Source of the DNA: a virus
DNA length: 41,735 bases
Reading direction: 5' to 3' (one strand)
Virus record (IMG/VR): IMGVR_UViG_3300044638_002516
Span: 1-41,735 of that record
The translations under genes and the position numbers were made by a program. The notes below the pieces were generated by a model. It had not been told where the DNA came from, did not search any database, and worked only from the letters and a program-made list of their open reading frames with translations. Below, in pieces: positions 29,710-33,299 of the stretch. Numbering within the stretch: position 1 is the first letter of the stretch; each line of letters begins with the position of its first letter.

Positions 29710-32463
29710 TCAGTCCTTTTCTTCAGTCTCGGACTCTTTGATAGCAGCCCTGATGTTTAGTTTACATCCACCCTGCGGTCTAATTACGCCCTCAACGATC
29801 TCGCAACCATTTGGGCTGACCCAGAACGCGCAGTTAGAACACATGCGACCTTCGTAGGCGTAAGGCGATTCAGTGACATAATTTGCCCCGTCAGTTCCCT
29901 TTTGCGTCCACTTCCCGTGCCGCTTGGCGATGGTCTCGTAAGCGTCGTACAAAGCGTTTGCATGCGGAGGCAGCACCATGTTTGCTTCAGCCAATTTGAT
30001 GTCGTCATCGCCCATTGGGATTTCTTCCCCGACAAAATCGGCTGCGCTTGCTGGGTAAATACTCTGAAGAGCGGCGCTTTTTTCGGATGGCTCTGCTGGA
30101 ATGTCAATGACCTCATCTTCTGGGGTTTCAGCAACCTCTGCAACGATGTCATCCCAATACTGCGATGCCTGTGGGTTCCTTCGCAGCACATCGGAATTCT
30201 GCTTTTCGCAACCGCAAAGCACCTCAACCCACATGGAAATAAGATCTGGGTAATCAACTGGCGCAAGTGCTGTTCCAATTGACTCCTCGTCTACCGCTTC
30301 GGTAATAGCCTCGTCAAGAGCCTGAAGCCGCTCCTCATTGGTCAAAATTCTCCTGTCGCCCTCTGGCGTAACCTGCCCTCGTTTAATGACGCGATCCTTA
30401 ACCCCCCTGCCTTCTGGGGTTTCTACAAATTGTCCAGTTTTTGCATCCCAAGTTGCAGCGACTACATATTTGAAAAGCGGCTGGTCTGGCTGACCAGTCT
30501 CCCTGTAAACACCTTGCTTTCCCGTTTTGGGGTCAATAACGGGTACGCGCTCAATGACAACCAACCTATCCCAAGCGGGCGGCTTGCGATTAATACCCTG
30601 AACAATTGCGGCGTTGGATTTCACATGTCCATCAGTGATCACCGCGTCTGGAACACTTCTCTTTAGCGGAACCTTTGTTCCGTCTGTTGTTTTAATCTCA
30701 ACTTCTTTTTTGTTCCTTGTCCTCACTGTGCCGCGAATACCGTCGGTTGGCGATGTGCCGATTCTTGTGGTGATAAACACGCCAACGGTTTCGTGACCAG
30801 ATCCCTGTGCGCCGTCGTAGATTCCTTTTCGCTTTCCATCAGACCCGTCGCCAGTGCCATCAAAAATAATGTCCGATTTCCTCGCAAGCCCCACCTCTAG
30901 GGCGCGCTGCGCGACGACGCTAGACTCCTCATGCACTCTTGCTGCGGCTGTTACTTTTGTCCTTTTGCCAGTAGTGTCTGTGACAATTCGGTCGGCGCGA
31001 GCCTCTCCATCTGCCCCCCAAATGCCATGTTTTGCGTGGTCAGAGTTAATCGTGGCTGCTGTTCCCGTCGGGCGCAGTGTTGTTGTGCCGTCTTCGTTTT
31101 GCTTTAATGCTGGCTGGGGAATGCGAATCCCAGCATCATCAAGCGCCCGCCGCATCTGCACGCCGTCTGGGTCTGTTTCGTCTGCAAGTTTCTTAAGAAC
31201 TGTTGTTTTTCCAGATCCGCCACCGCCGCCCATGATGACAAGCGTTGGCTTTCCGTCTTCGCGGACAACGCCGCGATCCTTGACCAGTTCTGGCGTAAGA
31301 GTTTGCTGCGATACCAATTTGGTATGAAGCAGTTCTCGCGGCGCAGTAAGTTGACCGTCTGCGGTCGTGTGCATGCTTAATGTGCCTTTTGGCTCCGTGG
31401 TCTTTAGCGAAGCAACAGAAGATGCCTTTGCTGCTGGCAAAGAGCCTAGTTCAAGCGTTTGAATTTGCCCAGCGGTGCTTGGCGAAGTGGGAGTGCTTGG
31501 CTCAGTAGAGACAATATCAATCCGCTTTGCCTGAAAAAGCGTTGGGTCTTGATATTCCTTGGGGTCGCTTGCGCCGCCACCACCGCCGCTGCTACCCGTG
31601 CTGCCAAATCGCCCCCTGCGATCTCGCGGCTGCCCAGCGGCATACTCCAGCAGAATCTTGTCAACGACTGACTCCGCAGCCTCGCGAACCTTGTTGGTCA
31701 TTTTTGGCGCTACGGCTTGAGCGCCTTGTCCAGTTCCTCCAACTGGGGGTCGCGTGGGCGCGGCTGAAGACTGGCTGCGATCTGCTCCCAGAGCGCCTCC
31801 GCTACCTTTCGTCGTTCCTCTGCCGTCATTTCCTTGAGGTTCTCTGGAACCTTGAGGATTACGGGCTTCTCCGATTCGTCCATCACCACCTGTAGGAATC
31901 TCCTTAAATGTTCTCAGATTAAAAATACTGATCTGGTTGCGATCTCGTCCTGCCCTTAGCGCAACGCTTCTTGCGTTGGCTGGAAATACTTCCGTCACAT
32001 CTAAGAATACACGACCAGTCTTAACTTCGTGCCAAATCCCTAAGTGCATTTGCGGCTTCTCAAAAGCCGCCGCGTTCTTTTGCAGGAAGTTGTCAACCAT
32101 GACAACCCCCTTGCCCCTGTCAAAGAAGTCTGACGCTTGATGGATTTCCCCAGCCACGCCCGTTGCAACTGCGTAGCCGCTCTTGGGCTGCTGCCCTGTC
32201 AAAATTACTGCGTCGTCGCCAATTTCGTTAATTGTTACGCCCGCTGGGATGGTTGCTCCACCAACCGCCCCTGTCTGGGCAACTGCCGCCGCAGGGTCAA
32301 CCACACCCCCACCGCCGCCACCGCCGCCAGTGCCTGAAAATCTGCCCTTGCGATCCCTTGGTTGCCCAGCCGCATACTCCAGCAACGCCGCCTCAGCCAC
32401 CAGCGCCGTAGCGCCGACAGAAACGACAATTGCCTCTAGGTCTTCAACAAACTTTTCTTCCAT
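29710..32463 (-). CDS. Multidomain head-region protein with zeta-toxin-like kinase and two QPRD tags
   Basis: A 917-residue protein. Order: tag 1 EYAAGQPRDRKGRF (29-42) with a glycine run; a domain at about 75-195 (MHLGIWHEVKTGRVFLDV, RAGRDRNQISIFNL, EIPTGGDG) that I know from phage head proteins, unknown function; tag 2 EYAAGQPRDRRGRF (273-286) with glycine run; and a zeta-type P-loop kinase. In the kinase, Walker A is GGGGGSGKTT (412-421), then INSDHAK, HEESSVVAQRAL (511-522) and IIFDGTGDG (532-540). A helical region and a C-terminal four-cysteine cluster (875, 878, 887, 900) follow. Zeta toxins phosphorylate UDP-amino sugars; no antitoxin gene is adjacent. It overlaps the ART gene by one base (TAATG). 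Confidence 0.82.
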   Translation of the reverse strand: MEEKFVEDLEAIVVSVGATALVAEAALLEYAAGQPRDRKGRFSGTGGGGGGGGVVDPAAAVAQTGAVGGATIPAGVTINEIGDDAVILTGQQPKSGYAVATGVAGEIHQASDFFDRGKGVVMVDNFLQKNAAAFEKPQMHLGIWHEVKTGRVFLDVTEVFPANARSVALRAGRDRNQISIFNLRTFKEIPTGGDGRIGEARNPQGSREPQGNDGRGTTKGSGGALGADRSQSSAAPTRPPVGGTGQGAQAVAPKMTNKVREAAESVVDKILLEYAAGQPRDRRGRFGSTGSSGGGGGASDPKEYQDPTLFQAKRIDIVSTEPSTPTSPSTAGQIQTLELGSLPAAKASSVASLKTTEPKGTLSMHTTADGQLTAPRELLHTKLVSQQTLTPELVKDRGVVREDGKPTLVIMGGGGGSGKTTVLKKLADETDPDGVQMRRALDDAGIRIPQPALKQNEDGTTTLRPTGTAATINSDHAKHGIWGADGEARADRIVTDTTGKRTKVTAAARVHEESSVVAQRALEVGLARKSDIIFDGTGDGSDGKRKGIYDGAQGSGHETVGVFITTRIGTSPTDGIRGTVRTRNKKEVEIKTTDGTKVPLKRSVPDAVITDGHVKSNAAIVQGINRKPPAWDRLVVIERVPVIDPKTGKQGVYRETGQPDQPLFKYVVAATWDAKTGQFVETPEGRGVKDRVIKRGQVTPEGDRRILTNEERLQALDEAITEAVDEESIGTALAPVDYPDLISMWVEVLCGCEKQNSDVLRRNPQASQYWDDIVAEVAETPEDEVIDIPAEPSEKSAALQSIYPASAADFVGEEIPMGDDDIKLAEANMVLPPHANALYDAYETIAKRHGKWTQKGTDGANYVTESPYAYEGRMCSNCAFWVSPNGCEIVEGVIRPQGGCKLNIRAAIKESETEEKD

Positions 32464-33299
32464 TAGTCTGGGATCACCGTCAACTGAACCAAAACGCTGC
32501 CCTCCCTGTCTCCGCGAGTAATTTTATTGACCTTAAATCGCGTGTTTGGTGGCAAAAGCACTTCGCTCTCCCTGTTTTGACGAAGCCAAGTTCCTCGTGG
32601 GAAATTAGCGCGGGTGTGTTCAAAGTTTAGCGCCCTGCTTCCTTTTGGAATCGTAATTGAAACCATGACGCTGGTAGAGAAGTTTAGCGCAACCATTGGG
32701 TTTGTCGTTGTTGCTGTAAACTTTGGAATGACGATCTCTCCGCCCACGCCAGCCCGCGTTGCGGCAGTAATAAGCGCAGATTCCCCGCGCTGAAGTTTCA
32801 CGCCGCGCACAACTTCCATGTCTTCTGTTGTCCTTGACCTTGAGGCTAGGTCGGTAAGCACCTTGGCATGCGTTCGGTCGGCGGGGGTGATCCTGTGTAC
32901 GCCCTTATTTGGGTCGGTAATGATTGTTTTGCCTGTTACCGCGCCCTGAATTGCCTTGTAGCCAGTGCTGCTGTTCCACACCGAAAGCGCAAGCGTCTCT
33001 TCTGGCGTTGTAGCAATTTCTTTGCCCGTTACCCTAATCGGGGTGTCGTCGTAAGGATTTTGCGTGCCTGTAACCCAGCCATTTTTAGTGTGTTCTGACT
33101 TTGACTCTAAAGTCTTTGCTTGGTCAATGGCTTCGCGGGCAAGCAAGTCTGCTGGGCTTTCGGGCGTAAGCGCGCCCCCGCCGCCACCACCGCCGCCAGT
33201 ACCAGAGAACCGCCCCCTTCGGTCTCTGGGCTGACCTGACGCATATTCTACAAGCGCGTCATGAGCAACTGAGGCGAGATCACCGTCAATCGCCCCCAT
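32463..33299 (-). CDS. ADP-ribosyltransferase with QPRD tag
   Basis: A 278-residue protein. N-terminal tag EYASGQPRDRRGRF (18-31) and a glycine run (35-42) precede an R-S-E class mono-ADP-ribosyltransferase domain: R165 (EVVRGV), an STS-like FTATT segment (194-198), and the E-x-E catalytic motif E244-S-E246 in RESEVLLPPNTRFKV. This layout matches VIP2/C3-like and T4 Alt-like enzymes. Such proteins transfer ADP-ribose from NAD to host proteins. Its place among capsid genes plus the shared tag suggests it is packaged and injected. Confidence 0.85.
   Translation of the reverse strand: MGAIDGDLASVAHDALVEYASGQPRDRRGRFSGTGGGGGGGGALTPESPADLLAREAIDQAKTLESKSEHTKNGWVTGTQNPYDDTPIRVTGKEIATTPEETLALSVWNSSTGYKAIQGAVTGKTIITDPNKGVHRITPADRTHAKVLTDLASRSRTTEDMEVVRGVKLQRGESALITAATRAGVGGEIVIPKFTATTTNPMVALNFSTSVMVSITIPKGSRALNFEHTRANFPRGTWLRQNRESEVLLPPNTRFKVNKITRGDREGSVLVQLTVIPD

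What the first reader, a model, noticed from the sequence alone, without database searches (positions are those of the whole stretch)
29710..33299. Repeated EYA(A/S)GQPRDR(K/R)GRF + polyglycine tag on head-region enzymes
Three copies of a near-identical 14-residue tag followed by a Gly run occur in two adjacent genes: twice in the 917-residue protein (residues 29-42, 273-286) and once in the ADP-ribosyltransferase (18-31). Each stands immediately before a distinct globular domain. Repeated use of the same peptide before unrelated domains inside the capsid gene block suggests a signal for packaging into the prohead or for cleavage by the phage protease. I recall similar PRD-x-x-GRF stretches in other phage head proteins but have not verified this.
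Basis: partly seen in the sequence, partly recalled or inferred. Interest (0 to 1): 0.85.

Follow-up and report, generated by a model that had tools for sequence, protein, structure and literature searches.

The report
Phage head-cargo peptide tag
Three enzyme domains that this virus probably carries inside its head each begin with the same short peptide, and related peptides occur across many unrelated bacterial viruses on scaffolds, head proteases, portal proteins and toxin-like enzymes, so it is probably a general label for proteins that belong inside the viral head.

Summary
Three copies of EYA(A/S)GQPRDR(K/R)GRF plus a Gly run lie at 33207-33248, 32338-32379 and 31606-31647 (minus strand), before an ADP-ribosyltransferase (ART), a phage-only domain "X" and a zeta-type kinase. 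The genes sit between a MuF gene and the protease-capsid gene. Copies differ mainly at synonymous sites, so selection is on the peptide. In sister phages the three domains appear fused, split or missing, and each cargo protein found keeps its own tag. More distant capsid relatives lack both tag and cargo. The tag belongs to a large phage motif family, K-[FY]-x-P-x-QPR-(Dxx or VPAGxPxG)-G[RQ][WF]-[TAS]-xx-GG. GQPRDxxGRF gives at least 119 stretches in IMG/VR against 6 for the reversed peptide. Carriers are mostly portal and MuF proteins, ART and other toxin-like enzymes, and (core motif only) scaffold-position proteins. Named mycobacteriophages carry it at the N-terminus of the head maturation protease. 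I favour a prohead-loading tag for interior proteins (about 0.5). A processing site between anchor and effector, or a module junction, remain live. No virion proteomics or binding data exist here. I found no description of the motif in the open-access library searched.

The parts
33207..33248 (-). Tag copy A, EYASGQPRDRRGRF, residues 18-31 of the ART protein, followed by SGT and a run of eight Gly
32338..32379 (-). Tag copy B, EYAAGQPRDRKGRF, residues 29-42 of the 917-aa protein, followed by SGT and a run of eight Gly
31606..31647 (-). Tag copy C, EYAAGQPRDRRGRF, residues 273-286 of the 917-aa protein, followed by GSTGSSGGGGG
32463..33299 (-). Tagged ADP-ribosyltransferase, 278 aa; residues 1-55 (with the tag) predicted disordered, C-terminal part an ART fold
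   Evidence: Pfam ADPrib_exo_Tox 8.5e-5; model; PDB ART-type toxin structures E down to 8e-10
29710..32463 (-). 917-aa doubly tagged protein: tag - X - tag - zeta-type kinase - Cys-rich tail; a fusion of two proteins that are separate in L157
31876..32304 (-). Domain X (residues 54-196), phage-only alpha/beta fold; similar stretch in an annotated internal virion protein of Synechococcus phage S-CBP42
   Evidence: tblastn 33.6%, E=2e-4; model core pLDDT mostly 75-86; BFVD phage matches, no PDB match
31132..31266 (-). Core of the zeta-toxin-like kinase (residues 400-444, P-loop GGGGGSGKTT)
   Evidence: Pfam Zeta_toxin 3e-12
27570..29705 (-). Protease - major capsid protein fusion, directly downstream of the tagged genes
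   Evidence: Phage_capsid_4 2e-49; phrog_4523 'major head and protease protein' 1.8e-57
33854..40699 (-). 2281-aa MuF protein with long untagged extension, upstream of the tagged genes
   Evidence: Phage_Mu_F 1.9e-9; phrog_2468 1e-28; no tag in it
40706..41692 (-). Portal protein (328-aa ORF)
   Evidence: phrog_10963 1.5e-33

Best explanation
The tag is a short linear motif, with a glycine linker behind it, that docks proteins inside the assembling phage head (prohead). Each enzyme domain meant for the head carries one copy at its N-terminus: a helical lead, then the motif, a flexible Gly run, and the folded cargo. The motif would bind a partner on the inside of the prohead, most likely the capsid protein or its scaffold. 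The cargo (here an ART, domain X and a zeta-type kinase) would then be enclosed and later leave with the DNA to act in the infected cell. SHOWN here: the motif, its selection at peptide level, one tag per cargo protein through fusion and fission, its phage specificity, and its occurrence on capsid-interior kinds of protein (portal, MuF, scaffold-position proteins, head maturation protease, effectors). INFERRED: that the tag causes loading, which partner it binds, and that the cargo is in the virion and delivered.
For: Three tags under purifying selection (across 12 clade tags 440 synonymous vs 104 nonsynonymous codon differences, mutational opportunity 24% synonymous). In the clade with capsid identity of at least 81%, every ART, X or zeta protein found carries a tag: L157 has three separate tagged proteins, L150/L156 tagged X-zeta fusions, L151 only tagged zeta; capsid relatives at 31-48% have neither tag nor cargo. 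L157 cargo is 41-54% identical to the window's while 10-13 of 14 tag residues are kept. Related tags on proteins of other phages: N-terminal on ARTs in L069 and L027, on a zeta kinase in L334, before ART or nuclease domains behind MuF in L060 and L044. Motif carriers are portal, MuF, minor head, ART and other toxin-like proteins; neighbours of standalone carriers are head genes. 45 carriers are acidic proteins sitting between portal and capsid genes, the scaffold slot; two tested are homologous to an annotated scaffolding protein of phage Pam5, and the Pan3 homologue carries ARDDKGRFAPK. Head maturation proteases of the Predator group and of Nocardia phage P3.1 begin with the motif. Reversed-peptide control 6 stretches vs at least 119; bacterial-genome hits look mostly like chance.
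Against: No virion proteomics or binding data. In portal- or MuF-effector fusions the anchor already ensures packaging, so a tag there is redundant for loading. Repeated tags between domains of one chain (L330, L390) are not needed if one loading signal per polypeptide suffices. The scaffold-type motif lacks the upstream aromatic (0 of 45) and may be a different motif. Pam5's scaffold lacks it. The window's closest named capsid relative, Mae-JY22, has no tag.
Confidence: 0.5

Rival explanations
1. The tag is a processing site: the prohead protease (here fused to the capsid protein) cuts at or near it, freeing each effector from the portal, MuF or neighbouring domain so that it can leave the head.
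For: Tags sit at junctions between a fixed anchor and an effector (L060 MuF-tag-ART, L044 MuF-tag-PBECR2) and between successive domains of long chains (L330, L390). A portal-fused effector could hardly be delivered without being cut (inference). The window encodes its own protease. T4 and P1 head proteins lose an N-terminal segment to the head protease (PMC9024508, PMC12810830).
Against: The motif also stands at the extreme N-terminus of the protease itself in Predator and P3.1 and near the N-terminus of scaffold-position proteins in phages whose displayed head genes show no protease (Pan3, Pam5). By eye I saw no similar motif at the capsid-protein boundary in the window, though the true cleavage site is unknown.
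Confidence: 0.22
2. The tag is a module junction: a conserved, flexible, structurally neutral boundary that travels with effector cassettes when they are swapped between phages, like the VENN boundary of CdiA toxins, with no binding partner of its own.
For: It delimits interchangeable domains, cargo repertoires differ between close relatives, it is followed by Gly-rich sequence, and the middle of the motif varies in length (Dxx or VPAGxPxG).
Against: A neutral linker should not keep specific residues (aromatic, QPR, GRW/F) across unrelated phages; selection is on the peptide, not the DNA; and it occurs where nothing is being joined (N-terminus of protease and of scaffold-position proteins).
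Confidence: 0.2
3. The tag binds the packaged DNA (an Arg-rich, hook-like peptide), so that cargo is held with the genome and enters with it.
For: The window copies are Arg-rich, and DUF5681-like and AT-hook sequences with GRF/GRP cores are DNA-associated (my recollection, not tested).
Against: The widespread form KFDPDQPRDEHGRWT carries at least as many acidic as basic residues (consensus), so charge is not the conserved property; the scaffold-type copies sit in strongly acidic regions.
Confidence: 0.05

Closest known systems
Capsid targeting sequence (CTS) of T4 internal proteins
   Same: A short N-terminal peptide that sends unrelated proteins into the prohead; reporters follow it (Mullaney and Black 1996, as cited in PMC9024508).
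   Different: No sequence resemblance that I know of. Ours is internal or repeated as well as N-terminal, is found across many unrelated phages, and loading has not been shown.
P1 DarB N-terminal capsid-localisation region
   Same: An N-terminal region that directs a very large polyvalent effector, and a reporter, into the head (PMC9024508).
   Different: DarB's may need a folded N-terminus rather than a short motif; no GRF/GRW motif is reported there.
MuF polymorphic toxins / phage polyvalent proteins
   Same: MuF or portal proteins fused to ART, zeta, PBECR and other effector domains in head gene blocks (PMC5576092, PMC5512222).
   Different: A word search of those two papers found no shared tag or linker described; here many effectors are separate proteins that carry the tag without MuF.
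VENN boundary of CdiA toxins
   Same: A short conserved motif at the start of interchangeable toxin domains (general knowledge).
   Different: Those are surface/secretion systems; the phage motif differs in sequence and also marks scaffold-position proteins and proteases.
Encapsulin cargo-loading peptides
   Same: Short peptide plus flexible linker that docks cargo on the inside of an HK97-fold shell (general knowledge).
   Different: Those are usually C-terminal with other consensus sequences; no direct binding evidence here.

Membership tests
Phage motif family K[FY]xPxQPR-(Dxx/VPAGxPxG)-G[RQ][WF][TAS]xxGG (defined here) | QPRD..GR[FW] core | tested here: met
   All three window tags
Phage motif family K[FY]xPxQPR-(Dxx/VPAGxPxG)-G[RQ][WF][TAS]xxGG (defined here) | Aromatic four residues before Q, a feature not imposed by the search pattern | tested here: met
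   Y in all three window tags; 103 of 124 W-form and 41 of 53 V-form contexts have F/Y there, background 5-6%
Phage motif family K[FY]xPxQPR-(Dxx/VPAGxPxG)-G[RQ][WF][TAS]xxGG (defined here) | Gly-rich stretch directly after | tested here: met
   Gly runs in all three copies; W-form mean 2.8 Gly per 10 residues against 0.9 background
Capsid targeting sequence (T4 type) | Sends cargo into the prohead | not testable with these tools
   Needs virion proteomics or reporter packaging
Capsid targeting sequence (T4 type) | N-terminal position in the cargo protein | tested here: inconclusive
   Met for the ART (18-31), the first tag of the 917-aa protein and all three L157 proteins; not for the internal second tag
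Prohead protease cleavage site | Cargo is cut at the motif in virions | not testable with these tools
   Needs mass spectrometry of virions
Prohead protease cleavage site | Phage encodes a head protease | tested here: met
   Protease-capsid fusion 27570-29705
MuF polymorphic toxin | MuF domain and effector in one polypeptide | tested here: not met
   ART and X-zeta proteins carry no MuF domain; MuF is a separate gene
Phage polyvalent protein (Iyer et al. 2017) | Several conflict-type enzyme domains in one virion-context protein | tested here: inconclusive
   The 917-aa protein joins X and a zeta-type kinase in a head gene block; X function unknown and virion presence untested
ADP-ribosyltransferase | ART fold with R and ExE residues | tested here: met
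   Pfam, fold, R165 and E244/E246 invariant in four tagged ARTs

The most novel reading that the evidence does not exclude
One short peptide code, K[FY]xPxQPR...G[RQ][WF]T-GG, is a widely shared address label for the inside of tailed-phage heads. It is used by scaffold-position proteins, head proteases and a large, mostly uncharacterised set of delivered effectors (ARTs, zeta kinases, nucleases, an Acb1-like anti-CBASS protein, a RelA/SpoT-like domain), and can be used to find new virion-packaged anti-defence proteins directly from sequence.
Probability: 0.35. Interest if true: 0.9.

Novelty: new variant of a known kind. Interest (0 to 1): 0.75.

Why it matters
How most phages choose which enzymes to enclose in the head and deliver with their DNA is known only for a few models (T4, P1). 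A shared motif would let virion-packaged effectors, including anti-defence proteins and toxin-like enzymes, be predicted across metagenomic phages. It would also make the loading mechanism testable by swapping a 15-residue peptide, and offer a general handle for loading enzymes into phage particles.

Tried and rejected
(1) Chance repeat or recent duplication: rejected by synonymous divergence; L156 does show a near-identical pair (98% nt), so gene conversion or duplication occurs sometimes. (2) A motif common to bacterial proteins generally: in genome contigs most of 120 hits are short or antisense-looking ORFs; I judged about a dozen genuine, resembling the phage forms. (3) A plasmid or conjugative polyvalent-protein motif: no match in plasmids (a weak test, since short-peptide tblastn is insensitive). 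(4) Direct tblastn of the window tag in named phages: no match; W-form queries did better, the V-form found none. (5) YA-extended pattern in genome contigs: none, so no host could be assigned. (6) PDB match for domain X: none. (7) ART and X models were built from 4-6 sequences; tag regions are predicted disordered, so they say nothing about a bound form. (8) Literature: the searches run found no paper describing the motif; subscription papers and preprints are not covered. (9) search for related loci with the ART alignment was not an unbiased test of tag frequency, because its seeds fell in the tag itself.

Full report
OBSERVATION. The window is a complete IMG/VR record of 41,735 bases with no host name. 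Reading down the minus strand, the head block runs: portal (40706-41692), a 2281-aa MuF protein (33854-40699), a 145-aa ORF, a 278-aa ART protein (32463-33299), a 917-aa protein (29710-32463), and a protease-capsid fusion (27570-29705). The pattern for GQPRDxxGRF matches three times on the minus strand, never forward, and never when read backwards.

SELECTION ON THE PEPTIDE. Pairs of window tags share 2, 4 or 7 identical codons of 14, with 10, 9 or 6 synonymous and 2, 1 or 1 nonsynonymous differences; the 20 residues before the tags are mostly different. Over all 12 tags of the close relatives there are 440 synonymous against 104 nonsynonymous codon differences, while random changes would be only 24% synonymous. 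The peptide, not the DNA, is conserved.

ONE TAG PER CARGO. Loci fetched by homology to the capsid protein, not to the tag, split cleanly. In relatives with capsid identity of at least 81%, cargo varies: L157 has three separate proteins (ART, X, zeta), L150 and L156 have X-zeta fusions, L151 has zeta alone. Every one carries its tag, including two in the fusions. L157 cargo is only 41-54% identical to the window's, yet 10-13 of 14 tag residues are kept. Capsid relatives at 31-48% identity, and Microcystis phage Mae-JY22 (38%), have neither cargo nor tag. The 917-aa protein is therefore best read as two tagged proteins joined, each keeping its tag.

A LARGE PHAGE MOTIF FAMILY. The related QPRDxxGRWT gives at least 120, and QPRVPAGxPxGGQW, noticed inside L330, gives 63. 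Outside the letters imposed by the patterns, the W and V forms share F/Y four residues before the Q (103/124 and 41/53, background 5-6%) and mostly P two before it; the W form is followed by Gly-rich sequence. The window tags have Y at that place and Gly behind. In bacterial genomes the F pattern mostly hits short or antisense-looking ORFs, with about a dozen genuine-looking cases (my judgement) resembling the phage forms.

WHAT CARRIES IT. F-form carriers with a PHROG match are chiefly portal, MuF/head morphogenesis, minor head and ART families; Pfam adds zeta and a HINT domain. W-form carriers: portal, MuF, ART, zeta, Tox-REase-5, topoisomerase I, Acb1, CDI toxin, RNase A, colicin E5, GNAT. 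Only the 25 most frequent families were displayed. Architectures show the tag just before effector domains: MuF-tag-ART (L060), MuF-tag-PBECR2 (L044), tag-ART alone (L069, L027); tag-zeta alone (L334); tag-ART-MuF (L392), tag-RelA/SpoT-like (L341), InPase-tag-DUF7178-tag-zeta (L390). L330 reads tag - domain that looks ParB-like to me - tag - X - V-form tag - zeta - MuF. Neighbours of standalone tagged proteins are portal, large terminase, maturation protease and capsid genes.

SCAFFOLDS AND PROTEASES. 45 of 87 non-redundant F-form carriers are acidic 219-413-aa proteins, most of them lying between a portal and a major head gene, the usual scaffold slot. Two tested are homologous to the annotated scaffolding protein of Pseudanabaena phage Pam5. 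Phage Pan3's homologue has ARDDKGRFAPK; Pam5's lacks it. This form has the core without the upstream aromatic (0 of 45, partly by my definition of the class), so it may be a related but distinct motif. In Mycobacterium phage Predator and relatives, and in Nocardia phage P3.1, the head maturation protease begins with FNPRQPRDxxGRW.

MECHANISM. Portal, MuF, scaffold, head protease and effectors have one thing in common: they belong, or are expected, inside the prohead. A docking motif for the prohead interior is the simplest common explanation, and the Gly run would let the cargo hang free. It explains the protease and scaffold cases, which a cleavage-release site explains poorly. The cleavage or junction readings better explain tags between a fixed anchor and an effector, and repeated tags in one chain. 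Both could hold: docking, then trimming, as T4 and P1 internal proteins undergo (PMC9024508, PMC12810830). I put docking at 0.5, processing at 0.22, junction at 0.2.

CARGO. The ART model matches ART-type toxin structures (E down to 8e-10), with R165 and E244/E246 invariant among four tagged ARTs. Domain X has a compact fold with phage-only matches and resembles part of an annotated internal virion protein of Synechococcus phage S-CBP42 (33.6%, E=2e-4), which fits delivery from the head.

LIMITS. Effector names are family matches, not tested functions. The literature search covers open-access papers only. No experiment links the tag to packaging.

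Noticed in passing
L330:2053-2094 and 62 further stretches: A second form of the motif with a longer middle, K[FY]xPxQPRVPAGxPxGGQWT, found in the same protein as the Dxx form in L330 and L494.
   Followed up: partly
window 33854-40699: MuF protein of 2281 aa with a long extension; residues 2077-2145 match PI3/PI4-kinase weakly (E=0.003). It diverges fast between close relatives (58-73% in L150 against 97% for the capsid protein).
   Followed up: no
window 29713-30063: C-terminal Cys-rich stretch of the 917-aa protein (CSNCAFW...NGCEIVEG...GGCKL), kept in all relatives of the zeta protein.
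   Followed up: no
W-form carriers, alignment A5: One tagged protein matches Acb1, the anti-CBASS protein (E=9e-41), and L341 has a tag before a weak RelA/SpoT match: candidate virion-delivered anti-defence or toxin domains.
   Followed up: no
L046:12473-13479: In relatives with only the tagged zeta protein, the slot upstream holds an untagged Cys-rich protein and a thioredoxin-like protein instead of the ART.
   Followed up: no
L433:3263 and 3495: Two small ORFs between portal and protease of Nocardia phage P3.1 both begin MARNYKRDGxGRFAK, a reduced form of the motif.
   Followed up: no
scaffold-position proteins such as L020:3345-4115: N- and C-terminal ends share a similar short peptide (TSLDEIF near the start, GPTPLGDIF at the end), perhaps capsid-binding.
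   Followed up: no
L353:4741-5091: Domain X also occurs inside an untagged 990-aa ORF of a phage whose scaffold-position protein carries the motif.
   Followed up: partly
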